From Blastocatellia bacterium (lineage in GTDB: Bacteria > Acidobacteriota > Blastocatellia > Chloracidobacteriales > Chloracidobacteriaceae): 64,000 nt of DNA. How positions within the stretch are numbered: position 1 is the first letter of the stretch; each line of letters opens with the position of its first letter. Below the pieces are notes generated by a model. The model worked only from the letters and a program-made list of their open reading frames with translations. It was not told where the DNA came from and searched no databases. Location of the stretch: NCBI GenBank assembly GCA_019695185.1, contig JAIBAN010000018.1, positions 1 to 64,000 of the forward strand, in the 5' to 3' direction. Both the position numbers and the translations under genes were made by a program. This document shows positions 1 through 60,580 of the stretch, piece after piece.

Positions 1-136
1 GTTTAGTTTTCAACTCTCAACTCTCAACTCTCAATTCTCAATTAAAAAGACCCTGGACCCTGAACCCTAGACCCTAAACCCTAGACCCTGAACCCTAGAC
101 CCTGAACCCTAGACCCTGAACCCTGGCCCCCAACCC
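1..136. repeat. Heptad tandem repeat block at the left edge
   Basis: Two adjoining families of 7-base repeats fill this gap. Positions about 10-45 are copies of CAACTCT/CAATTCT, and about 51-126 are alternating CCCTGAA/CCCTAGA/CCCTAAA units. The second family is the same as the CCCTGAA arrays near 44.8, 49.3 and 55.4 kb. The block begins right after the TAG stop of the ABC ATPase gene. Only one arm is visible; if the pattern seen elsewhere holds, an inverted partner lies left of the window. No gene is seen here. Confidence 0.85.
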
Positions 137-1066
137 CTACTGCACTTCCCCTTTGGTCACGCTCATAAAGATTTCTTCGAGGTTGGCGCGTTGTTGTTTG
201 AATTCCACAATCCGGAAACCACGTTGCACCAGATGCACCAGCAAATCACAGCACATGTCCTCCGGCCCGTTGACTTCGGCGGCAATTTCGGGGCCAACCA
301 CCCGGACGGCTTCAATATTGGGCAACTGAAGGAGTTCACGGTACAAATCCTCTTGCCCCGCGAACGGTCGGATGAGAACCGTCCGTTTGGGAACCCGGCT
401 GGTTATCAGTTCCTGCATGTTTCCGGCCATCAAAATATGGCCCCGCTCAATAATCACCGCGCCGTTACACATTTCCGCCAGCTCGGTCAAAATGTGCGAG
501 CTGATGAGAATGGCTTTGCCTTGAGTGGCCAAAACCCGCACCAGTTCCCGCAATTCAATCCGGGCGCGCGGGTCCAGTCCGGCTGCCGGTTCGTCCATAA
601 TCAGAATCGGCGGGTCATGCAGTAAAGCGCGGGCCAGTGTCACTCGTTGTTTCATCCCCTTGGAAAGAGAATTCACCATTTTTTCCCGGATACCGGTCAG
701 ATTGGTAAATTCCTGAACTTCCTCCAGCACCTGCCGCCGGGCGGCTCCCCGCAATCCATAGGCACGGGCAAAAAAATCCAGATACTCCTGCACCGACATG
801 TCGCTATGACCGGGCAGCGCATCCGGCACATATCCAACCAGGTGACGGGCTTTTTCCGGTTCCTCCACCACTGACACGCCGTCCAGAAAAACGTCCCCAC
901 TGGTGGGTTCGTCCAAAGTGGCAATGATGCGCATGGTGGTGGTTTTCCCGGCTCCGTTGGGACCGACAAAACCCACGATTTGCCCGGAGGAAAAGGAAAA
1001 GGACACATCGTCCACCGCTTTGGTATTTTCAAAATGCTTTTTCAGATGAACGACTTCAAGTTTCAC
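137..1066 (-). CDS. ABC transporter ATP-binding protein
   Basis: This is a 309-residue nucleotide-binding subunit of an ABC exporter or ABC-2-type system. It would hydrolyse ATP on the cytoplasmic side for a membrane partner. Walker A GPNGAGKT is at residues 35-42, the signature LSKGMKQR at 134-141 and Walker B LIMDEP at 155-160, followed by AAGLDP. The Q-loop region reads GYVPD rather than GYVPQ, a variation common in NatA/CcmA-like proteins. The C-terminal ~90 residues are an accessory domain typical of ABC-2 drug/Na+ exporters. Its ATG overlaps the stop of the upstream gene by 4 bases (ATGA), so the two are translationally coupled. The expected permease gene is not in the window and may lie beyond the left edge. 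The family call is firm; the substrate is unknown. Confidence 0.93.
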   Translation of the reverse strand: MKLEVVHLKKHFENTKAVDDVSFSFSSGQIVGFVGPNGAGKTTTMRIIATLDEPTSGDVFLDGVSVVEEPEKARHLVGYVPDALPGHSDMSVQEYLDFFARAYGLRGAARRQVLEEVQEFTNLTGIREKMVNSLSKGMKQRVTLARALLHDPPILIMDEPAAGLDPRARIELRELVRVLATQGKAILISSHILTELAEMCNGAVIIERGHILMAGNMQELITSRVPKRTVLIRPFAGQEDLYRELLQLPNIEAVRVVGPEIAAEVNGPEDMCCDLLVHLVQRGFRIVEFKQQRANLEEIFMSVTKGEVQ

Positions 1067-4048: not shown

Positions 4049-4060
4049 AATAAAAGTAAT

Positions 4061-4200
4061 GAGGACTGAGGACTGAGGACTGAGGATAAATCCAGAGCCG
4101 GGAAACAGTTTCGGTCCATATGTGTCTGTCGCATGTCCAAAGTGGTGTTATTCAAGAACCGGCAGAAACTCAGTCCTCAGTCCTCAGTCCTCAGTCCTGG
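4061..4200. repeat. Inverted GGACTGA heptad repeats between tandem genes
   Basis: Positions 4061-4086 carry about 3.7 copies of GAGGACT. Positions 4169-4198 carry about four copies of its reverse complement (AGTCCTC), and one more copy lies near 4210. Next to the arms, AAATCCAG (4088-4095) and CTGGATTT (4197-4204) are also complementary. The ~80 bases between would loop out. The whole 4049-4222 gap, between the coiled-coil gene and the MoxR gene, holds only this element. It could form a long hairpin in RNA. Confidence 0.85.
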
Positions 4201-17673: not shown

Positions 17674-17699
17674 TGAATTGTCCGAGCTCGGACAATTCA
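17674..17699. promoter_or_regulatory. Palindromic operator candidate, copy 1
   Basis: This is a perfect 26-bp palindrome whose core is TTGTCCGAGCTCGGACAA, extended by TGAA/TTCA arms. It is centred about 60 bp upstream of the acyl-CoA synthetase start and overlaps the TGA stop of the KAS III-like gene. It is one of seven identical cores in the window. The lack of any loop argues against a terminator and for a dimeric DNA-binding protein. Confidence 0.75.
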
Positions 17700-21566: not shown

Positions 21567-21770
21567 ATGCAATACAAAATGAATGAAATTGTCGAGATTG
21601 TCGGCATTACCCGCAAAACTTTGAAAAATTGGCTTGGTCGGCACGTTCCTGAGCCAAAACGTGCCCAAAACGGGTACCGGGTCTTTTCCGAGGACGATTT
21701 GCGCCAAATCATGGCTTACAAGCAAAAATTGGTTGCAACCACGAATTATCACCTAGGAGCGTTGAAATGA
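21567..21770 (+). CDS. Small MerR-like HTH protein
   Basis: This 67-residue protein is little more than one winged helix of the MerR/excisionase type (MNEIVEIVGITRKTLKNWLGR, then NGYRVFSEDDLRQIMAYKQ). It lacks the coiled-coil dimerisation helix of full MerR proteins. Its TGA overlaps the ATG of the first ParA gene (ATGA), so it is translationally coupled to the partition operon. Small DNA-binding proteins of this kind often control plasmid partition operons or bind centromeres; here it could recognise the decamer repeats 1.2 kb downstream. An internal ATG at 21579 is an alternative start. Confidence 0.8.
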   Translation: MQYKMNEIVEIVGITRKTLKNWLGRHVPEPKRAQNGYRVFSEDDLRQIMAYKQKLVATTNYHLGALK

Positions 21771-22576
21771 CCGAACGTACCCGGATTCGGAAGATTTCTG
21801 TTCAAAATTTCAAGGGTGGAGTCGGAAAGACGGCTACGGTTTTGAATTTGGGGGCCTGTTTCGCCGACAAGGGTTACAAGGTTTTAATGATTGACTGTGA
21901 TACCCAAGGCGATTTGACCGAAGTTTGCGGCATTCGGCTGGAAAAGCGGCAGCCCACCCTGTATCACGTTTTGATCGAGGATTTGAACGTGATGGAAGTC
22001 GTCGTTCCCTTGCGGCCCAATGTGCATATTCTCCCCTCTGACAAAAAATTGGCTGCCGCTGAAGCGTTGTTGGTGGGAATGACCGCCCGTGAAACCACCC
22101 TTTCCCTCAGGCTTGGGCACCTTGCCGAATTTGATATTGTTTTGCTGGATTGTGCCCCGGCTCTGAATCTTATGCACCAAAACGCCCTTTTGTTTGCTGA
22201 CGAGCTTTTAATCCCGGTGGATATGGACAAGCTTGCCATCTCCGGGTGTCGGGCAATTTTGGAATCAGTCAATACTTTAGGCGTTTATAATAATTTTCGG
22301 ATTCCCGAACTGACCGGGATTATACCCACTTTTGTGGACCAGAGGACCAACATTACCAACCAGGTGTTAGGCGTCCTTGAAACGCTCTACCCTGGGAAGG
22401 TCCTTCCTTCCATTCGGTCCGACACCAAACTGAAACAAGCAGCCGCAGCCTCCCAATCCATTTTTGAATTCGATCCGAAAGCCAAAAGTGCCAACGATTA
22501 CCGGGTTGTTACCGAGACGCTCATACAAATGAAGGAGGGCTTCCGTGATGAGGAAGCAACCGCCGTCTCCCAATAG
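21767..22576 (+). CDS. parA: ParA-family partition ATPase (first copy)
   Basis: This 269-residue deviant-Walker-A ATPase has NFKGGVGKTATV near residues 11-22, keeping both the signature Lys (KGG) and the P-loop Lys. DCDTQGDLT is the switch-I-like motif and DIVLLDCAP the Walker B. ParA ATPases bind DNA cooperatively with ATP and are released by ParB, moving replicons or other cargo. It starts 4 bases inside the preceding HTH gene and its end overlaps the next gene by 29 bases, so the operon is tightly packed. It lacks the long N-terminal HTH of P1-type ParA; the separate small HTH protein may replace it. Confidence 0.92.
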   Translation: MTERTRIRKISVQNFKGGVGKTATVLNLGACFADKGYKVLMIDCDTQGDLTEVCGIRLEKRQPTLYHVLIEDLNVMEVVVPLRPNVHILPSDKKLAAAEALLVGMTARETTLSLRLGHLAEFDIVLLDCAPALNLMHQNALLFADELLIPVDMDKLAISGCRAILESVNTLGVYNNFRIPELTGIIPTFVDQRTNITNQVLGVLETLYPGKVLPSIRSDTKLKQAAAASQSIFEFDPKAKSANDYRVVTETLIQMKEGFRDEEATAVSQ

Positions 22577-24038
22577 CTCTGGGCCTAAAAAAGTTTTGAC
22601 TCCTCCTTCCTGGCTGAAAGATGTGACGCCTGATGAAGAAGTCATGGCCGCGTTTTATAAAAGCAATCCACCGGCATCTCATCTGAAGCCGGTGGAACCC
22701 TTGGTGGCCGGTCTTGATACGCTTCCCGCTCCTCCCAGCCAAGAAGAAATTTTAGCAAATTCACCTACGGAACAGTACGGAACAGTACGGAACAGTACAG
22801 AACAGTACGGAACACCTCCAACTCTTCAACCACCTACTCCTTCTTTCAATCAAACTATTGAAAATCAGCACTTTACCTATCAACCACCGATTCCCCAGCC
22901 ATCGCCCTCCGCTCTTTCAGCCACCTACGGTACAGTACGGAACAGTACGGAACAGTACGGAACATCCACCCAGAAAGAACTCTTCCCTTTGGGTGAGAAC
23001 AAAAGAGTACAGCCACTCCAGCCGGTTTCGGTGCAACGGGATTACAACAAACGGCCAAATTCGCTGGAACGGGATGCAGTGCCATTGGGACTCTTTCCGG
23101 GCACGACCAAGGTTTTGTATGACATTCTGTTTCAGAGGTCACGGGGAGCTGTGGAACCAACCAGACTGGTCCAACTCAGTTCAGCCAACCTCATCAAGTT
23201 GGCCCGTCTTTCGGAAAAAACGCTGTGGCGGCACCTGACCTATTTGGAAAACACGGGTTTGATTGCACGTCGGATGGATTTGATCAACGAGCCCCAGTTT
23301 GACAAGAAGGGGGGAAATATTTATGAGGTTTTTATCCCGGAAGAAATCAACCTCGAACGGGCGCTCCTGATTGCCAAAGATAGCAAACTCAATGAGCCGG
23401 GCAAAAAAAGTTTTCCACAGGGGAACAGTACGGAACAGTACAGTACAGTACGGAACAATGTTCCCGGAACAGTACGGAACAATGTTCCGTACCTGAATTC
23501 CGCAAGTTCTTTGGAATCAACAAATGCAGCCCCCTTAAGACATGTAAGACATACTACGGAAGAAGAAAGCGCGGCTGCGCGGCTGACCGGTTACCTGAGC
23601 CAAATCTTCAACGAACAGCTCGGTCGGGAACTGACCACCGAAGAACGACTGGGCATTTTTGCCACCCTCACGGAGGAACTCCTGGACTTGGTTCACATTG
23701 CCCTCCAGGCCAATGGCCAATACGGCCAACAACCCATTGAAAACCCGGTCGCCTGGTTTACCGCCATGATTGGCCAACGGCTGGCTGGCAGGAATCGCAA
23801 GCGCTCGCCGGAAGAAAGCCTGCGGGCAGCGGTCTGGGTAACTTTACGGGAAATCGAACGGGAACACGGTGGCCGCATCACGGCAGAAGAACGGGATGAT
23901 GTGGAACTGGAATTGATGCGCCGACTGGTGCCAAAATATAACCAGAAAATGGCCAATCCGGCCCGATTCATCAAGGAACAAATCACCAGTTGGTGGATGA
24001 TGATCAAACCAACCGGCCCAACCACGGGACAGAAATGA
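22548..24038 (+). CDS. Winged-helix protein with embedded iterons (candidate replication initiator)
   Basis: The protein has 496 residues from the ATG at 22548, after AAGGAGGG; a GTG at 22545 is an alternative. Residues about 165-255 look like a winged helix (SANLIKLARLSEKTLWRHL, then LENTGLIARR). The C-terminal ~150 residues are all-helical and charged. Two low-complexity parts (about 74-140 and 290-325) repeat EQYGT and VRNST because the DNA beneath them is made of exact 10-bp repeats. An origin-like cluster lies in the second part. It sits between two ParA genes, overlapping both neighbours. It may be a replication initiator or centromere-binding protein; no named family was recognised. 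Its A+T-rich, repeat-driven codon use is unlike its neighbours. Confidence 0.75.
   Translation: MRKQPPSPNSSGPKKVLTPPSWLKDVTPDEEVMAAFYKSNPPASHLKPVEPLVAGLDTLPAPPSQEEILANSPTEQYGTVRNSTEQYGTPPTLQPPTPSFNQTIENQHFTYQPPIPQPSPSALSATYGTVRNSTEQYGTSTQKELFPLGENKRVQPLQPVSVQRDYNKRPNSLERDAVPLGLFPGTTKVLYDILFQRSRGAVEPTRLVQLSSANLIKLARLSEKTLWRHLTYLENTGLIARRMDLINEPQFDKKGGNIYEVFIPEEINLERALLIAKDSKLNEPGKKSFPQGNSTEQYSTVRNNVPGTVRNNVPYLNSASSLESTNAAPLRHVRHTTEEESAAARLTGYLSQIFNEQLGRELTTEERLGIFATLTEELLDLVHIALQANGQYGQQPIENPVAWFTAMIGQRLAGRNRKRSPEESLRAAVWVTLREIEREHGGRITAEERDDVELELMRRLVPKYNQKMANPARFIKEQITSWWMMIKPTGPTTGQK
22766..22815 (+). repeat. Iteron array 1 (five 10-bp direct repeats)
   Basis: Five contiguous units of TACGGAACAG follow with exact 10-base spacing; the fourth is TACAGAACAG and the last ends in C. 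The array lies inside the winged-helix gene. Since 10 is not a multiple of 3, the repeat is read in all three frames, so it was kept or amplified as DNA and not as a protein repeat. One unit per helical turn puts all sites on the same DNA face. Confidence 0.92.
22926..22965 (+). repeat. Iteron array 2 (four 10-bp direct repeats)
   Basis: Four contiguous units: TACGGTACAG, two of TACGGAACAG, and TACGGAACAT. Consensus and spacing match array 1, which ends 110 bp upstream. The array is inside the same winged-helix coding sequence. Confidence 0.92.
23411..23492 (+). other. Origin-like cluster: DnaA box, iterons and inverted repeat
   Basis: TTTTCCACA at 23411-23419 fits the DnaA-box consensus TTWTNCACA exactly. 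It is followed at once by a third run of GGAACAGTAC-type repeats (23422-23458). The run ends in two inverted sites. At 23452-23464, GGAACA and TGTTCC are separated by one base. At 23472-23492 there is a perfect 21-bp palindrome with arms GTACGGAACA and its complement around one A. Direct repeats therefore contain the half-site of the palindrome, as in iteron plasmids where the initiator binds both. The cluster lies in the winged-helix gene, a position known for phage lambda O and RepABC repC origins. Confidence 0.6.
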
Positions 24039-24817
24039 AAAGAACCATAGCCATTTGCAACCAAGCCGGAGGCGTTGGGAAAACGACGACCACCAGAGAC
24101 CTCGGATTTGAACTGGCGGAAAGAGGTCACCGGGTTTTGGTACTGGATGCCGACTCCCAAGGGTCGCTGGGAGAATTCCTCGGCTTAAACCCCCACCGCA
24201 GCGAGCGACAAAGCATCTGGCAATTCATTGCGTCCGAAGCGGACCCGGCGCGGGAAGAGCCGCCACCGGACATGCTCTGCGAGGCCTACGGACTGACAGT
24301 GGGCATTTCCAATCTGCAATTGATAAAACTTGAACGCCGCCTGATCGAACAAAGACAACCGCACCGGCTGTATACAATTTTGGCGTCGTTGGGTGACAGA
24401 TTTGACTATGTCCTCATTGATTGCCCGCCCAACATCAATGAAATCAGCATTCAGGCGCTCTTTGCGGCAGACGAATTGATTGTCCCCGTCCAAACCGAGG
24501 AAAAAGCCGTGGCCGGAATGTTTCTCATCCAGGAGGAACTGATCGAAACCAACAAGCGGCGGATGCCTTTCAGACCAACTCTGAAAATCGCCGGATTTTT
24601 ACCAACGCGCTACAATCCGAGCCGCAACCTGCATAAACACTGCCTGACGGAAATCGAACGGATGACCGCCAGTCTCAATTGCGCGTTGTTTGATCCCATC
24701 CGGGAATATATCGCCGTCGCCGAAGCCTGCAATGCAGGCAAGCCATTGAAACTGCATGCCCCCCATTGCCCGGCGGTTCGTGACATCCAGAACCTGGCTG
24801 ACCGGCTTTCAGCGTAA
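24035..24817 (+). CDS. ParA-family ATPase (second copy) lacking the signature lysine
   Basis: The protein has 260 residues from the ATG at 24035, which overlaps the stop of the preceding gene (ATGA). The P-loop reads NQAGGVGKTTT, so the deviant-Walker signature Lys (normally KGG) is Ala11, while the P-loop Lys16 and Thr17 remain. DADSQGSLGEF and YVLIDCPPNINE are the other ATPase motifs. It differs greatly from the first ParA (21767-22576), so this is not a recent duplication. The signature Lys normally reaches across the dimer to the partner's ATP; its loss is known in the McdA branch of ParA-like proteins. The ParB gene follows after 7 bases. It could partner ParB while the first ParA serves another cargo. 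Confidence 0.88.
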   Translation: MKRTIAICNQAGGVGKTTTTRDLGFELAERGHRVLVLDADSQGSLGEFLGLNPHRSERQSIWQFIASEADPAREEPPPDMLCEAYGLTVGISNLQLIKLERRLIEQRQPHRLYTILASLGDRFDYVLIDCPPNINEISIQALFAADELIVPVQTEEKAVAGMFLIQEELIETNKRRMPFRPTLKIAGFLPTRYNPSRNLHKHCLTEIERMTASLNCALFDPIREYIAVAEACNAGKPLKLHAPHCPAVRDIQNLADRLSA

Positions 24818-24824
24818 AAAAACT

Positions 24825-25712
24825 ATGGCAAAAAATTTTGCTTCGCGCAGCCAACACGAATTCGACACCTTAGCCAACAAGGTCAAAGCCAGTACCGCCG
24901 GTGAAGCGGTTCACTTGGTCTCAGCGGAAAAACTGACGCCCAACCCATTTCAACCGAGAACCACGTACCAGGACCGCGAACTGCTCGAATTAGCGGAAAG
25001 CATCCGGGAGTTTGGCATTTTGGAACCGTTGGTGGCCCGAATGGAGGCAGGTGGAACCTATCAGTTGGTGGCAGGGCACCGTCGGTGGGCAGCCGCCCGA
25101 AAAATCGGTTTAACTGAGGTTCCGGTGGTGGTCCGCCACGTGCGGGACGATGAAATGCTGGTGCTGGCTCTGGTGGAAAACATCCAACGGCAGGACCTCC
25201 ACCCGGTGGATGAAACCCTGGCGTACCGGGAGTTGGTGACCCTCTGCGGCAGCCAGGAAAAAGCCGCCCAGCGCATCAGCAAAAACCGCAGCACCCTGGC
25301 CAACAGTTTGCGATTGCTCAACCTGGGTGACGACCTTTTAGCCCAATGCCGGGAACTGGCGGATGTGTCGCAAGCCACCCTCCTGAAAATCCTCCGGATT
25401 CCCGAAGCCTTGCGCCCACAAGCCGTGCAAAAATTGAAGGCAACCCAAACCCTGACCCCAGCCGGACCGCAACCCGCAGGCGAACGGAAAAAAACCGGAA
25501 GGTTTGTGGTTTCCCACCGGTTTGACCGAAAATCCTCGCCCTTTAAGGTGGAGGTCCGGTACCGGAAAACGAATCCCGCCCCAAGTGAGGTTGAGCAAGC
25601 TTTGCTCTATGCTTTGTACAGCCTGGAAGGAAAACCCGAAGACAGACCCAAGCAGGGTTTTGCCGAATTTGTGCGGGCTTTTGAAACATTCAGGAAAAAT
25701 CTGGCGGACTGA
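24825..25712 (+). CDS. parB: ParB-family partition protein
   Basis: The protein has 295 residues from the ATG at 24825 (MAKNFASRSQHEF), 7 bases after the second ParA gene. It has the ParB N-terminal CTP-binding domain: LTPNPFQPRTTYQD, then LAESIREFGILEPLV, VAGHRRWAAAR and ALVENIQRQDLHPVDE. A helix-turn-helix follows (SQEKAAQRISKNRSTLANSLRLLNL). The C-terminal 90 residues differ from the chromosomal ParB dimer domain, having beta-rich FRKSSPFKVEVRYRK-like sequence. ParB clamps spread from a parS site and stimulate ParA. No TGTTTCACGTGAAACA-type chromosomal parS site was seen nearby, but the GGAACA/TGTTCC repeats 1.3-2 kb upstream resemble parS half-sites. Confidence 0.92.
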   Translation: MAKNFASRSQHEFDTLANKVKASTAGEAVHLVSAEKLTPNPFQPRTTYQDRELLELAESIREFGILEPLVARMEAGGTYQLVAGHRRWAAARKIGLTEVPVVVRHVRDDEMLVLALVENIQRQDLHPVDETLAYRELVTLCGSQEKAAQRISKNRSTLANSLRLLNLGDDLLAQCRELADVSQATLLKILRIPEALRPQAVQKLKATQTLTPAGPQPAGERKKTGRFVVSHRFDRKSSPFKVEVRYRKTNPAPSEVEQALLYALYSLEGKPEDRPKQGFAEFVRAFETFRKNLAD

Positions 25713-28744: not shown

Positions 28745-28762
28745 TTGTCCGAGCTCGGACAA
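28745..28762. promoter_or_regulatory. Palindromic operator candidate, copy 2
   Basis: This is the perfect 18-bp palindrome TTGTCCGAGCTCGGACAA, with TGT and ACA one base further out. It is centred 75 bp upstream of the CoA-transferase/racemase start. The promoter probably lies between it and the start, where AT-rich TATTTT and TACTAT sequences occur. Confidence 0.75.
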
Positions 28763-28833: not shown

Positions 28834-28853
28834 ATTGTCCGAGCTCGGACAAT
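28834..28853. promoter_or_regulatory. Palindromic operator candidate, copy 3
   Basis: The core palindrome is extended by A/T to 20 bp and centred 90 bp from copy 2 and 165 bp upstream of the CoA-transferase/racemase start. A separate 16-bp palindrome, CTTTTCAATTGAAAAG, lies between the two copies at about 28803-28818. Confidence 0.75.
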
Positions 28854-28878
28854 TCAATTATGAGGTGTGGCTGTTGCT

Positions 28879-28952
28879 CAACAGAAGCAGGCATTGAACC
28901 AGCGCCCACTCGGTTACGAGCCGAGTGCTCTCAGCCACTGAGCTACCCTGGA
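28879..28952 (-). tRNA. tRNA-Thr(CGT)-like sequence with a poor acceptor stem
   Basis: Read on the minus strand, the D-arm TAGCTCAGTGGCTGAGAGC is normal. The anticodon stem CTCGG/CCGAG closes a 7-base loop CTCGTAA with anticodon CGT (threonine). A 5-base variable loop and a T-loop starting TTCAA follow. The T-stem has one T-T mismatch. The acceptor stem pairs TCCAGGG with TTCTGTT: the two outermost pairs fail and the two innermost are G-T wobbles. No CCA is encoded. It is either a diverged working tRNA or a decaying copy. It lies alone between the VWFA and CoA-transferase genes. Confidence 0.6.
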
Positions 28953-29035
28953 GCATTGCCAGGAGCATCAAATCAGGTCTTTCCCACGTAGTCCAGGTCA
29001 GGGTGATTTGAAAAGCAATTTCCACCATGGAACAA

Positions 29036-31443: not shown

Positions 31444-31465
31444 AATTGTCCGAGCTCGGACAATT
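31444..31465. promoter_or_regulatory. Palindromic operator candidate, copy 4
   Basis: The core palindrome is extended by AA/TT to 22 bp. It lies in the 391-bp gap between the acyl-CoA dehydrogenase and VWFA genes, 225 bp upstream of the VWFA start. This distance is larger than at the fatty-acid genes, so its target is less clear. Confidence 0.7.
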
Positions 31466-32852: not shown

Positions 32853-32878
32853 TGAATTGTCCGAGCTCGGACAATTCA
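32853..32878. promoter_or_regulatory. Palindromic operator candidate, copy 5
   Basis: This is a perfect 26-bp palindrome with the shared core and TGAA/TTCA extensions, the same extent as copy 1. It is centred 80 bp upstream of the acyl-CoA dehydrogenase start, close to the spacing at the acyl-CoA synthetase (60 bp) and racemase (75 bp) genes. Confidence 0.78.
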
Positions 32879-32920: not shown

Positions 32921-32942
32921 AATTGTCCGAGCTCGGACAATT
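32921..32942. promoter_or_regulatory. Palindromic operator candidate, copy 6
   Basis: This is a 22-bp palindrome with the shared core, centred 66 bp from copy 5 and 147 bp upstream of the acyl-CoA dehydrogenase start. The pairing of two copies repeats the layout before the CoA-transferase/racemase. The rest of the gap to 33132 holds a short TTTCAA/TTGAAA hairpin near 33094 and nothing else recognised. Confidence 0.75.
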
Positions 32943-39402: not shown

Positions 39403-39422
39403 ATTGTCCGAGCTCGGACAAT
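39403..39422. promoter_or_regulatory. Palindromic operator candidate, copy 7
   Basis: This is a 20-bp copy of the conserved palindrome, 13 bp beyond the stop of the methyltransferase gene and 278 bp upstream of the TPR-CHAT start. The 299-bp gap holds nothing else recognisable. Of the seven copies it is the least obviously tied to a lipid gene. Confidence 0.68.
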
Positions 39423-44722: not shown

Positions 44723-44862
44723 TAGGGTCCAGGGTCCAGGGTTCAGGGTTCAGGGTCTGGGGTCTTTTGAATGGACAATGGGCAATTACAATCAGTTCAA
44801 AACCCTTTCTTTTTCTGGTCTTCGAAAACCCTGAACCCTGAACCCTGAACCCTGAACCCTAT
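44723..44862. repeat. Inverted GGGTTCA heptads between convergent genes
   Basis: The left arm (44724-44762) has five AGGGTCC/AGGGTTC units, and the right arm (44828-44860) has nearly five CCCTGAA units, its reverse complement. The gap between holds ~65 bases of unique sequence. The right arm runs into the TAG stop of the anti-sigma-like gene. A T-tract (44862-44867) lies on the + strand beyond the right arm. It could act as a two-way terminator. Confidence 0.88.
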
Positions 44863-49150: not shown

Positions 49151-49346
49151 GGGTCCAGGGTCCAGGGTTCAGGGTTCAGGGTTCAGGGTTCAGGGTTCAG
49201 GGGCTTCTGAAAGCAAAAGGCAGAAGGCAGTAATGAAACCCGAACCCAGGGTGGCGGAATGAGAATTGTAAGCCGGTTCAAAACCTGGATTTTCCGGTAT
49301 TCAAAAACCCTGGACCCTGAACCCTGGACCCTGAACCCTGAACCCT
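49151..49346. repeat. Inverted GGGTTCA heptads between convergent genes
   Basis: The left arm (49151-49201) has seven units of the GGGTCCA/GGGTTCA type. The right arm (49307-49345) has CCCTGGA/CCCTGAA units ending in the TAG stop of the regulator gene. A short AGGCAGA heptad lies inside at about 49217-49229. Both neighbouring genes converge here, and nothing else is recognisable in the 199-bp gap. Confidence 0.88.
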
Positions 49347-55227: not shown

Positions 55228-55236
55228 AAGGTTGGG

Positions 55237-55397
55237 TTTAGGGTCCAGGGTCCAGGGTTCAGGGTTCAGGGTTAAGAAAATCAGAAGTCAGAAGTCAGAA
55301 ATGGAAAACCGAAAAGGGGAACCCATGTTTCAGTTCTTCCTTTTGCCTTCTGCCTTCTGCCTTCAAAAGACCCTGAACCCTGAACCCTGGACCCTGG
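55237..55397. repeat. Nested inverted heptads of three families between convergent genes
   Basis: The outer arms are AGGGTCC/AGGGTTC units (55239-55273) and CCCTGAA/CCCTGGA (55371-55397). Inside lie CAGAAGT units (about 55281-55300) and TGCCTTC units (about 55343-55365). Only the outer pair is mutually complementary. The gap (55228-55421) contains nothing else. Confidence 0.88.
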
Positions 55398-56758: not shown

Positions 56759-59700
56759 TTAAAAAGTGGCTTGTCCGAAACTGACGGCCCGCAGGAGTGA
56801 AAAATCAGTTGAGGTCAATTGCCCGTTGCCCCGGCTCCCGTTCGGGTTCGCTGGAACCACATCAACCGAAAGTGTTTGCCGGGTTGTTGGTGTAGCCAGG
56901 AAGAGCAGAAATGCCCGTGCCAGTGTCACATCATTGGTTGCAAAAACACCATCCCGGTTGACATCGCCCCAGAGAATGAATTCAGGAAAAACCGCTGCCG
57001 GGCTGGATGGGTCTGGGGAATTGGAGGGCAGATTTTCCGTCGTTACGTCAAATCCATCCACCCGCACCGTCAGATAGCCGTTGATATTGCCAGTTCCGTT
57101 GGTGGAAGGCGGTACCGTCACGCTAATGGAATTTGCCGTCGCCGCCGTCACAGTGGCGGAAATCAATCGTCCTTCCCCGAAAAAGACCTGGGTACTGCCC
57201 GGCACAAATCCGGTGCCGCTGATGGTGATGGTTTTCCCGCTGGTTGAGGCCACCGGATAAAACTGCGTCACCGTATGGTTGGGCACGCCCACGGTTACGG
57301 AAAAACTGGCATCGGTCGAGGCTCCACAGTTGTCCGTGGCCCGAATTATGATGGTATGAACCCCCACCGGAGCGGCATTGGCAAACGTCACGGCTCCCGT
57401 GGTGCCATTGACCGAAACGGTTCCGGTGTAGGTTCCCTGGCTTTGCACCGCGAGGCTGGCAATGGAACCGTTCTCCGTCGGCCCGGTGGCAGGGGTAATC
57501 GTCCGCCCGCTGCCCAGCGTCACAGAGGCCGCATTGTAGCTCAGTCCTGGCGGCGTGTTGGCCGTCACATTCACCGTCAGACTAGCCTGGATGTTCTGGC
57601 AAAGCCCATCCGACACCTGCAAACCCACCAGATTGGGTCCGGTTCCCGCCGTGCAACCGGCGGTAATCGCGGCCTCAATCTGGCCGTTGGTGTTGGTGAT
57701 GGAGGTGACGGAAATCCCCGCCGGTACGCTCGTGACGGTCACCACCAGATTTGCGGCGGGCGTTTCCACATCCGCAACGGTGGCAATCGTGGAAATCAGC
57801 AGACTGCCCCCTTGTGACCGGGTGACCGGTGCCGCAGCCGTAATGGAAGGCGTGCTGTTGACCGAGTAGGTTTGTCCGGTAAACGGCAAGCCGGTCACGG
57901 TCGGGGTGGCCCCTGCCGGGCTGGTCATATTCAGCCCCAAGGTGCCGCTCCCGCTGCCCGTGACCGCAGAGACGGTCCAGATGGTGCCGCTGCCGGTCAC
58001 GTTGGTGATGCTGGCTCCGGTCAGTCCGGAACTGACCAGAGTAAAATTTGCCTGACTCAGACCTGCTGTCGGGTCGCCAAAGGTCACGGTCCAACTGACT
58101 GTGGTTCCGCTGCAAACCGTGGCTGACTGGTCCCGATTGAGCGAAACCACTGAGTTGGGCAAATCCCGCAGGATATAGACCGCACCTGACTGACCGGCGG
58201 AATTATCGGCCTGATTCCCATTGATACCGGTGGCGTTGCTACTCTCTCCGGTTGCCCCAATCACCATCGTGTCGCCCGAAAGCGCCACCTGGGTGCCAAA
58301 CGAATCAGAAGCATCCGTATTTGACGCTTTGAGGTACGCCCGCTGGCTCCAGGTGGTGCCGCTGCGGACAAAAAGATAAGCGGCACCCGCACCCGAAACC
58401 GAGTTGTCGGCCTGATTTCCATTGACGCCGGTGGCGTTGCTGTTTTCTCCGGTTGCCCCAACCAGGACCATATCGCCTGCCGCTGCCACTGAAATACCAA
58501 AGCTATCGCTTCCCTCGGTATTGGACGCCTTGAGGTATGCCTGTTGTGTCCAGACAGTTCCATTTCTTACAAAGACATAAGCGGCCCCGGCATTGAGCGC
58601 CGAGTTGTCGGCCTGATTGCCATTGGCTCCAGTGGCATTGCTGCTTTCCCCCACCGCACCCACCACCAGCGTGTCTCCCGAAAGGCCCAGGGACCCGCTG
58701 AACCGGTCAAGCACATCGGGATTGGACGCCTTGAGGTATGCCTGCTGGCTCCAGGCGGTGCCATTTCGCACGAAAACATAGGCAGCGCCGGCACTGGCTG
58801 CCGAGTTATCCGCCTGGTTGCCGTTGACTCCGGTCGCGTTACTGTCTTCCCCGTTCGCCCCCGCCACGACCGTATCACCCGAAATTGCCAACCTCCCTCC
58901 AAAATTGTCCTGCCCGTCGGTATTGGACGCTTTGAGATAGGCCTGCTGGCTCCAGGTGGTGCCGCTCCGGACAAAGACATAGGCGGCACCGGCGGCGCTC
59001 AGGGAATTGTTCGCCTGGTTGCCGTTGACCCCGGTCGCGTTACTATCCTCTCCGGTCGCCCCCACTACGACCGTATCACCTGAAATTGCCAAACCATCGC
59101 CAAAATTGTCGCCCATTCCGGTATTGGACGCCTTGAGGTACGCCTGCTGGCTCCAGGTGGTGCCGCTCCGGACAAACACATAGACGGCACCCGCACCAGC
59201 AGCCGAAGTATCCACCTGATTGCCGTTGACCCCGGTGGCAGCACTTGACTCGCCAACTGACCCAATGACCACCGTATCTCCGGAAATGGCGACCGCAGTC
59301 CCAAACAGCGCCGCCGTCCTGGTATTGGACGCCTTGAGGTACGCCTGCTGGCTCCAGGTGGTACCGTTTCGCACGAAAACATAAGCGGCACCGGCATTAC
59401 TGAGCGAGTTGTCCGCCTGATTGCCGTTGACCCCGGTCGCGTTACTGGCTTCCCTGGATGCCCCCACCACCACCGTGTCGCCTGAAATGGCCAAGGCTCC
59501 AGCAAACCGGTCGCCGCCATCGGTATTGGACGCCTTGATGTATGCCTCTTGCACAATCGGGTCCACCGTGATGGGGAACTCGGCTCCGGCGGTTTCCACA
59601 GCCACTGCCAGAACCCGCTCATCCGGGGAAGTTGCTTCAAAACAGGCGGGCAGCGGTTTTCCGGTCTTGTCCCAGGCTTTCAACCCGCCGTAATTGAGAA

Positions 59701-60382
59701 CCATTCCACCGTCCGGTTTCTGAAACCCAACCCCTTGGCCGTCCTGTCCCGGAACCAGCCGGAGTCCTCCGCGAATGGCCAGATTCAACCGCAGCCGGGT
59801 ATTTTCCGGCCCGGAACCGGTAAGAGGTTGTTTGATGGTCCAACCTTGCTCCAGCCCATTGGCCTGATTGACAAACCATTCGTTGAGGTTTTCATTCCAC
59901 TCGTAGGTGATGCGCTCGCCTACGGTCACCACTTGGGGCTGCTTCCCTGTCAACCGCTGTTCCTTCCCGGCCATTCCGTAGCTCGTCAGTTCCAGCCCCC
60001 AGTTCCAGCTTTGACCATCGGCTTTGAGGTGAAATCCGCGCCCGTCAAACTCCGTCAGGTACTGCTGGCTGTGGCTGCGGGCCATCCATAATTTTTTCCC
60101 GCTGGCAAACACCTTGCGGCGTCCGGATTCGTAGGCGTCCCGGATTCCTTTCCATTCCAATTTCTGCAATCCCTTGGGAGCTTCCTCAACTTGCGGTTTC
60201 TGCAAATTGAGCGCAGAAACCGAGGGACCGAAGACTGAGGACTGAGGCCGAAGGTTTATTGCAGTCGAGGTGCCGGTTTTCTGACCTCTCAAAGAGGCTG
60301 GTTGCCGCAACTGATGGACGCTCCACAGACTTCCACCGAGCAGGCTTAAAATCACAACTATCCGGAAAAGAACGGTACGCAT
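56759..60382 (-). CDS. Large secreted FG-GAP repeat protein with dockerin-like C-terminus
   Basis: The protein has 1207 residues with an N-terminal signal anchor (FRIVVILSLLGGSLWS). Residues about 280-750 hold seven tandem ~66-residue FG-GAP repeats (YLKASNTDGGDRFAGALAISGDTVVVGA, ending AAYVFVRNGTTWSQQ). At DNA level the seven units of ~195 bp at about 58150-59550 are highly alike, so recombination could change their number. A beta module related to that in the 6150-10445 protein follows (about 835-1030), then an IPT-like domain. A dockerin-like end (GDVNRDGVFATNDVTLARAFLLF, then LTSTDFSLLRAV) has one complete calcium-binding repeat and one partial. Near residues 43-53, LRPQSSVFGPS is encoded by GGACTGA heptads, as if an intergenic element entered the gene. 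The role is probably adhesion or matrix. Confidence 0.87.
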   Translation of the reverse strand: MRTVLFRIVVILSLLGGSLWSVHQLRQPASLRGQKTGTSTAINLRPQSSVFGPSVSALNLQKPQVEEAPKGLQKLEWKGIRDAYESGRRKVFASGKKLWMARSHSQQYLTEFDGRGFHLKADGQSWNWGLELTSYGMAGKEQRLTGKQPQVVTVGERITYEWNENLNEWFVNQANGLEQGWTIKQPLTGSGPENTRLRLNLAIRGGLRLVPGQDGQGVGFQKPDGGMVLNYGGLKAWDKTGKPLPACFEATSPDERVLAVAVETAGAEFPITVDPIVQEAYIKASNTDGGDRFAGALAISGDTVVVGASREASNATGVNGNQADNSLSNAGAAYVFVRNGTTWSQQAYLKASNTRTAALFGTAVAISGDTVVIGSVGESSAATGVNGNQVDTSAAGAGAVYVFVRSGTTWSQQAYLKASNTGMGDNFGDGLAISGDTVVVGATGEDSNATGVNGNQANNSLSAAGAAYVFVRSGTTWSQQAYLKASNTDGQDNFGGRLAISGDTVVAGANGEDSNATGVNGNQADNSAASAGAAYVFVRNGTAWSQQAYLKASNPDVLDRFSGSLGLSGDTLVVGAVGESSNATGANGNQADNSALNAGAAYVFVRNGTVWTQQAYLKASNTEGSDSFGISVAAAGDMVLVGATGENSNATGVNGNQADNSVSGAGAAYLFVRSGTTWSQRAYLKASNTDASDSFGTQVALSGDTMVIGATGESSNATGINGNQADNSAGQSGAVYILRDLPNSVVSLNRDQSATVCSGTTVSWTVTFGDPTAGLSQANFTLVSSGLTGASITNVTGSGTIWTVSAVTGSGSGTLGLNMTSPAGATPTVTGLPFTGQTYSVNSTPSITAAAPVTRSQGGSLLISTIATVADVETPAANLVVTVTSVPAGISVTSITNTNGQIEAAITAGCTAGTGPNLVGLQVSDGLCQNIQASLTVNVTANTPPGLSYNAASVTLGSGRTITPATGPTENGSIASLAVQSQGTYTGTVSVNGTTGAVTFANAAPVGVHTIIIRATDNCGASTDASFSVTVGVPNHTVTQFYPVASTSGKTITISGTGFVPGSTQVFFGEGRLISATVTAATANSISVTVPPSTNGTGNINGYLTVRVDGFDVTTENLPSNSPDPSSPAAVFPEFILWGDVNRDGVFATNDVTLARAFLLFLATPTTRQTLSVDVVPANPNGSRGNGQLTSTDFSLLRAVSFGQATF

Positions 60383-60545: not shown

Positions 60546-60580
60546 AGGACTGAGGACTGAGGACTGAGGACTGAGAAAGA
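60546..60580. repeat. GGACTGA heptad run upstream of the FG-GAP gene
   Basis: About five contiguous copies of GGACTGA lie in the 549-bp gap 60383-60931. Related units inside the FG-GAP coding sequence (60225-60254) are in the same orientation, so no inverted arm is formed here. Confidence 0.85.

What the first reader, a model, noticed from the sequence alone, without database searches (positions are those of the whole stretch)
22766..23492. Ten-base iterons kept in a coding sequence in all three frames
Thirteen or more GGAACAGTAC-type units occur in three clusters with exact 10-bp spacing. As 10 is not divisible by 3, selection must act on the DNA. The same half-site makes the palindrome at 23472-23492. 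GGAACA/TGTTCC also resembles the parS half-site TGTTCCAC, so the array may be a centromere for the adjacent ParB or for the small HTH protein.
Basis: partly seen in the sequence, partly recalled or inferred. Interest (0 to 1): 0.72.

Follow-up and report, generated by a model that had tools for sequence, protein, structure and literature searches.

The report
Replication origin hidden inside initiator gene
The ten-base repeats are most likely the landing sites that a DNA-replication starter protein needs in order to start copying its DNA, written into the protein's own gene on both sides of the part that encodes its DNA-reading domain; dozens of related genes in prophages and bacteria show the same layout with other repeat sequences.

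Summary
In detail: GGAACAGTAC units stand in three 10-bp-period clusters, in all three reading frames, inside one 497-codon gene, and nowhere else in the 8.3-Mb genome. The centromere reading is not supported: the adjacent ParB has a better site, TTGTCCGAGCTCGGACAA, with 10 exact copies in the genome, 8 of them on this 92-kb contig. The gene belongs to an undescribed family of winged-helix, phage-O/RepA_N-like initiator proteins. In all 43 close relatives examined, the stretches up- and downstream of the winged-helix segment share one repeat unit, period mostly 9 or 10 bp (range 7-11). The unit differs between genes, follows the recognition helix rather than the C-terminal domain, and runs in several frames and both orientations. 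An AT-rich element next to the downstream array keeps its nucleotides, not its reading frame. Best explanation: the initiator's origin (iterons on both sides of the DNA-binding domain plus a DNA-unwinding-like element) lies inside its own gene, here within a secondary replicon's parS cluster. Lambda O and pSK41 RepA_N share the logic. New here: arrays on both sides, very short units, many unit types per genome, a new family. Binding and replication are inferred, not shown.

The parts
21567..21770 (+). small MerR/excisionase-type HTH protein, first gene of the module
   Evidence: Pfam MerR_1 8e-9; a small HTH gene precedes the ATPase in many relatives
21767..22576 (+). ParA-family ATPase 1
   Evidence: Pfam AAA_31 1.5e-45; ParA-like directly upstream of the array gene in 25 of 34 loci
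22545..24038 (+). initiator-like gene (497 aa) that holds the arrays
   Evidence: family of 43 close relatives; PHROG O-like/DnaD-like matches of members; fold nearest RepA_N
22766..22814 (+). iteron array U1, period 10
   Evidence: TRF
22926..22964 (+). iteron array U2, period 10
   Evidence: TRF
23022..23345 (+). segment coding the winged-helix DNA-binding domain, between arrays U2 and D
   Evidence: HMM match, AlphaFold model
23422..23492 (+). iteron array D with two inverted units; ends in the palindrome 23472-23492
23535..23558 (+). AT-rich element TTAAGACATGTAAGACATAC, nucleotide-conserved in relatives but read in another frame; unwinding-element-like
24035..24817 (+). ParA 2 of the partition pair (ATG overlaps the stop of the array gene)
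   Evidence: Pfam AAA_31 1.3e-34
24822..25712 (+). ParB of the partition pair
   Evidence: Pfam ParB_N 2.8e-29
17674..17699 (.). candidate parS TTGTCCGAGCTCGGACAA, copy 1
28745..28762 (.). candidate parS, copy 2
28834..28853 (.). candidate parS, copy 3
31444..31465 (.). candidate parS, copy 4
32853..32878 (.). candidate parS, copy 5
32921..32942 (.). candidate parS, copy 6
39403..39422 (.). candidate parS, copy 7

Best explanation
The 497-aa protein is a replication initiator whose origin lies inside its own coding sequence. Its winged-helix domain binds the short head-to-tail units (iterons) that flank the DNA encoding that same domain. Inverted units end the downstream array, and an AT-rich element about 45 bp further on is the likely site of strand opening and helicase loading by the C-terminal domain and the host. 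The flanking linkers are predicted to be disordered and tolerate any reading frame, so the DNA can carry the sites. Because the domain and its sites form one compact cassette, new specificities can spread by recombination and stay orthogonal to paralogues. Shown by computation: the architecture, DNA-level constraint, covariation and family. Inferred: binding, strand opening, origin function. In this genome the locus probably serves as origin and partition region of a secondary replicon.
For: 43 of 43 close relatives share a unit between the up- and downstream segments: longest shared string min 10, median 16, max 45 bp; cross-gene median 8. 112 control genes from the same loci: median 9, P 8e-21; periodicity P 1e-21. 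Unit similarity follows winged-helix identity (Mantel rho 0.27, P 0.001), not the C-terminal domain (rho 0.003, P 0.47); recognition-helix columns are the best predictors (P 0.006 against the rest of the domain, P 1e-5 against the C-terminal domain). Many frames and both orientations. Excess synonymous conservation 0.36 in the AT-rich element against 0.02 in the winged helix; the element is read in another frame in the window and in L011; AT peak 0.76 there. PHROGs: 16 members match an O-like initiator family (best 2e-5), 7 match a DnaD-like helicase loader (best 3e-6). Fold: RepA_N-DNA complex 5kbj is rank 1 for the window model, though only at E 4.6e-3. A separate ParA2-ParB with private palindromes clustered round the locus, and a GC-skew sign change near it.
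Against: No wet evidence of binding or replication. No PF06970 or lambda O Pfam hit on the proteins scanned. The winged-helix fold is common, and generic winged helices score alike. The gene next door is usually a ParA ATPase, which a partition reading would also expect. The GC-skew signal is weak and mixed beyond 46 kb. The domain and its arrays are physically linked, which alone could give part of the covariation.
Confidence: 0.8

Rival explanations
1. Partition: the winged-helix protein is the centromere-binding partner of the ParA ATPase encoded just upstream, and the in-gene arrays are its centromere (like TubR, ParR or AspA systems).
For: A ParA-type gene is directly upstream in 25 of 34 loci; centromere-binding proteins often bind short tandem sites (own knowledge).
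Against: In 8 of 34 loci the ATPase is an AAA_22/TniB/MuB-like protein, not ParA. The window replicon already has ParA2-ParB with its own clustered palindromes. Members match replication-initiation PHROG families. A nucleotide-conserved AT-rich element adjoins the arrays.
Confidence: 0.12
2. The arrays are operators by which the protein represses or road-blocks its own operon.
For: Initiators often autoregulate (own knowledge); the sites lie within the operon.
Against: No GGAACAGTAC-type unit lies at the operon's promoter side; units sit more than 200 bp inside the third gene and again past the DNA-binding domain; the AT-rich element is left unexplained.
Confidence: 0.04
3. Slippage-born low-complexity linkers with no DNA function.
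For: Linkers are predicted disordered; this genome has many 7-bp tandem repeats.
Against: The same unit occurs on both sides of a 310-bp unrepetitive domain in all relatives, also inverted; between L019/L020 and L100 arrays diverge 6-7% against 15-17% in the winged helix and about 20% in other linker DNA; 112 control genes show nothing like it.
Confidence: 0.02
4. One reading: parS centromere for the adjacent ParB.
For: GGAACA/TGTTCC resembles half of canonical parS; the 23472-23492 palindrome is near parAB.
Against: Canonical parS sits on contig C111. The window ParB has a private palindrome: 10 exact and no 1-2-mismatch copies in the genome, 8 on this contig. Sister ParABs carry private palindromes of the same layout TGT..ACA, whereas the array palindrome has its half-sites the other way round, AACA.TGTT. 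Relatives without a ParB gene next door keep arrays and inverted units.
Confidence: 0.02

Closest known systems
RepA_N plasmid initiators (pSK41, pTZ2162; PLE satellite RepA)
   Same: Winged-helix N-terminal domain binds tandem Rep boxes; in pSK41 these lie centrally inside the rep gene and the encoded linker is dispensable (PMC5703833). In PLEs the binding domain covaries with the origin and not with the C-terminal domain (PMC8263062). The closest DNA-bound fold match here is 5kbj.
   Different: No PF06970 match on the proteins scanned. Arrays lie on both sides of the binding domain rather than between the two domains. PLE iterons are intergenic and about 30 bp. Many unit types occur per genome here. 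The host is not a Firmicute or Vibrio.
Phage lambda O protein and ori-lambda
   Same: Origin inside the initiator gene: iterons, then a 40-bp AT-rich stretch; the N-terminal half binds the iterons (PMC4488673). Several members match O-like PHROGs and O N-terminal models in BFVD.
   Different: Lambda has four 19-bp iterons in one block; here units have periods of about 7-11 bp on both sides of the binding domain. No lambda O Pfam hit.
Iteron plasmids of the Rep_3 type (pSK639, pPS10, F, P1, R6K)
   Same: Initiator with winged-helix domains (own knowledge), direct repeats, AT-rich opening region.
   Different: In pSK639 the five 22-bp repeats lie upstream of rep, not in the coding sequence (PMC5703833); no Pfam Rep_3 hit here.

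Membership tests
RepA_N (PF06970) | significant match to the RepA_N profile | tested here: not met
   No PF06970 match at E<=1 for the window protein or six relatives
RepA_N (PF06970) | RepA_N-type winged-helix N-terminal fold | tested here: inconclusive
   5kbj rank 1 (E 4.6e-3), 4pql and 4pt7 in top 11 for the window model; Z 9.5 over 86 residues for L036, tied with generic winged helices
RepA_N (PF06970) | candidate binding sites inside the rep gene | tested here: met
   arrays in the coding sequence of all 43 close relatives; binding itself not testable
Lambda O (Phage_rep_O) | significant match to O profiles | tested here: inconclusive
   16 of 43 members match O-like phrog_18020 at E<=0.1 (best 2.1e-5) and 6 match phrog_678 (best 2e-5); no Pfam O hit
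Lambda O (Phage_rep_O) | iterons plus adjacent AT-rich element inside the gene | tested here: met
parS of the adjacent ParB | palindrome of the ParB's kind, clustered near parAB | tested here: not met
   a different palindrome fulfils this; no canonical parS-like site in the window above chance
Functional replication origin | supports autonomous replication | not testable with these tools
   needs a mini-replicon or marker-frequency test

The most novel reading that the evidence does not exclude
Probability: 0.45. Interest if true: 0.85.

Novelty: new variant of a known kind. Interest (0 to 1): 0.72.

Why it matters
The sites and the protein that reads them sit in one gene, so sequence alone pairs dozens of initiators with their likely recognition sites. 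That gives a natural data set for a winged-helix recognition code, a way to find origins of uncultured phages and plasmids, and a set of orthogonal replicons for engineering. It also shows a coding sequence shaped by DNA-level function in several reading frames at once.

Tried and rejected
Window protein in PLSDB plasmids and L036 in phage records: no match; L054 in plasmids and viral contigs: none. A relative through genome contigs with the window protein: none. Pfam and NCBIfam gave no usable family for the array gene; the solved-structure sequence search gave only a weak hit to a transcriptional regulator, 2d1h E 0.036. DnaA boxes: no excess in the window and none exact near the arrays; one 1-mismatch box TTTTCCACA at 23411 just before array D, within chance. 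Circularity of contig C121 by end overlap: none seen. GGAACA units near other relatives or other ParAB loci: none. The phylum-wide scan found the family only in the window's class. No description of this arrangement was found in the papers held, but most subscription papers are not held. GC skew was tried as origin evidence: sign change near the locus but weak.

Full report
OBSERVATION. The array is real. GGAACA stands at 12 exact places plus two degenerate and two inverted ones in 22769-23488. TRF reports period-10 arrays at 22766-22814, 22926-22964 and 23422-23481. All three frames of the 497-codon gene 22545-24038 are used. The 16-mer GGAACANTACGGAACA occurs six times in the 8.33-Mb genome, always in this gene; the 20-mer GGAACAGTACGGAACAGTAC is absent from the viral and genome collections.

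THE GENE. Pfam and NCBIfam give no usable match. A protein search in genomes of the same class finds relatives sharing a winged-helix domain (residues about 158-267), up to 11 matches in one genome (G100), and eight viral contigs. 43 non-identical close relatives were collected (the count includes the window gene itself). Of 396 genomes spread over the phylum only three have the family, all in this class.

THE KEY RESULT. TRF showed that nearly all relatives carry mostly 9- or 10-bp tandem arrays just before and just after the winged-helix segment, each with another unit: CCACCACTCC, CTAGTCAGA, CTAGTATAC, ACCCCTGTC, CCCAACCCAT and so on. In all 43 the upstream and downstream segments of one gene share a string of at least 10 bp (median 16, max 45); between genes the median is 8. 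112 other genes from the same loci, cut the same way, have median 9; P 8e-21 for shared strings and 1e-21 for periodicity. The commonest array 7-mer is read in two or more frame/orientation combinations in 42 of 43 genes, three or more in 29, and in both orientations in 37. So the constraint is on DNA. Among three close relatives, arrays diverge 6-7% while the winged helix diverges 15-17%, other linker DNA about 20% and the C-terminal domain 32-34% (L019/L020 against L100). The same layout appears in clades with very different winged helices, with 8-bp units (L054, L055, L182-L184) or longer palindromic ones (L190, L193, L198, L202, L022).

WHO READS THE UNITS. Unit similarity between genes follows winged-helix identity (Mantel rho 0.27, P 0.001) and not C-terminal identity (rho 0.003, P 0.47). 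After allowing for overall domain identity, the recognition-helix region is the best predictor (P 0.006 against other winged-helix columns, 1e-5 against the C-terminal domain; best positions 112 and 111). Examples: GSMVTVDAA goes with CTAGTA, GSRVTxEAN-like with CTAGTC, RNLKTxDxH with CACCACTC, TRHTYRxH with ACCCCTGTC, SKDAxKLH with GTAAGTA, KxIKTINxH with CCAGACC; the window has SEKTLWRH with GGAACAGTAC. Caveat: domain and arrays are linked on the DNA, which can give part of the whole-domain correlation; the helix enrichment is harder to explain that way.

AN ORIGIN-LIKE ELEMENT. Just after the downstream array, relatives carry CCTAAGACTTCTTTTAAGACTAATACT...GATGATGA. Synonymous choice there is far more uniform than expected (excess homozygosity 0.36, winged helix 0.02; F is TTT in 25 of 25, D is GAT in 40 of 40). 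AT content peaks at 0.76 there. The window has TTAAGACATGTAAGACATAC and L011 CCTAAGACTTTCTTTAAACACTAAGAC, each read in another frame than in the rest, so nucleotides and not residues are kept. Iterons plus an adjacent AT-rich element are the anatomy of lambda ori (PMC4488673).

KIND OF PROTEIN. Members match PHROG families of O-like initiators (16 of 43, best 2.1e-5) and DnaD-like helicase loaders (7 of 43, best 3.3e-6). AlphaFold gives confident winged-helix and helical C-terminal domains joined by low-confidence linkers, which is where the arrays are encoded. For the window model the top PDB match is the RepA_N-DNA complex 5kbj (E 4.6e-3), with 4pql and 4pt7 in the top 11 (identity of 5kbj and 4pt7 as RepA_N from PMC7145576); generic winged helices score alike. 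BFVD hits include replisome organizers and lambda O N-terminal domains.

NEIGHBOURHOOD. A ParA-type ATPase gene precedes the array gene in 25 of 34 loci, an AAA_22/TniB/MuB-like one in 8; a tyrosine recombinase is near in 9. A relative of the window ParB was not seen in the other 33 loci. In the window, ParA2-ParB follow with overlapping start. The genome has 16 ParB matches on 16 contigs, most in ParA2-ParB pairs, several beside large Toprim/helicase replication proteins. So ParA2-ParB is an exchangeable partition module, and the HTH-ATPase-array-gene set is best read as the replication module.

CENTROMERE QUESTION. Canonical parS is on contig C111. On C121 the palindrome TTGTCCGAGCTCGGACAA occurs eight times, from 17.7 to 71.2 kb, around the locus; the genome has ten exact copies and none with one or two mismatches. 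Sister ParAB pairs carry other private palindromes of the TGT..ACA kind. The GGAACA array is therefore not needed as parS. GC skew is -0.043 left of 22.5 kb and +0.013 from 24 to 46 kb, weakly consistent with an origin here. The contig also carries core genes (carB- and htpG-like by inspection of translations) and a tRNA-Thr, so it is a chromosome region or a secondary chromosome; its family includes 3.7-Mb genomes in two contigs.

VERDICT. What it works like: an in-gene origin, as in lambda O and pSK41 RepA_N. What it is: a separate family by sequence (no Pfam membership), with arrays on both sides of the binding domain and units of about one helical turn. PLE RepA_N domains are the known precedent for covariation of binding domain and origin (PMC8263062). 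Binding and replication remain to be shown.

Noticed in passing
window 17674, 28745, 28834, 31444, 32853, 32921, 39403; contig position 71171: Palindrome TTGTCCGAGCTCGGACAA: 10 exact copies in 8.33 Mb, none with 1-2 mismatches, 8 on this contig; likely parS of the window ParB. Single copies on contigs C22 and C178 may mark the same replicon.
   Followed up: partly
G000, contigs C214, C6, C199, C28, C83, C222, C48, C45, C12, C27, C65, C172, C117, C60, C111 (L141-L155): 16 ParB matches on 16 contigs of one genome, mostly in ParA2-ParB pairs, several with private palindromes nearby and some next to about 1100-aa Toprim/helicase proteins: an unusual number of partition systems; relative G003 has 10.
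   Followed up: partly
L092 (G100:C43): Two adjacent copies of the ATPase plus initiator-like module in one place; G100 holds at least 11 members with different units.
   Followed up: no
window 49-139, 4060-4086, 4169-4198, 44724-44860, 49151-49346, 55234-55273, 60546-60575: Many 7-bp tandem repeats with differing units (GACCCTG, TGAGGAC, CTCAGTC, AACCCTG, GGGTTCA).
   Followed up: no
window 58312-59547: Tandem repeat of period 201/402 inside a 1207-aa predicted protein (56762-60382, minus strand).
   Followed up: no
window 28878-28953: tRNA-Thr (cgt) directly beside two of the parS-like palindromes (28745 and 28834).
   Followed up: no
L068, L092, L097, L101, L105, L106, L107, L109: In 8 loci an AAA_22 (TniB/MuB-like) ATPase takes the place of the ParA-type ATPase upstream of the initiator-like gene.
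   Followed up: partly
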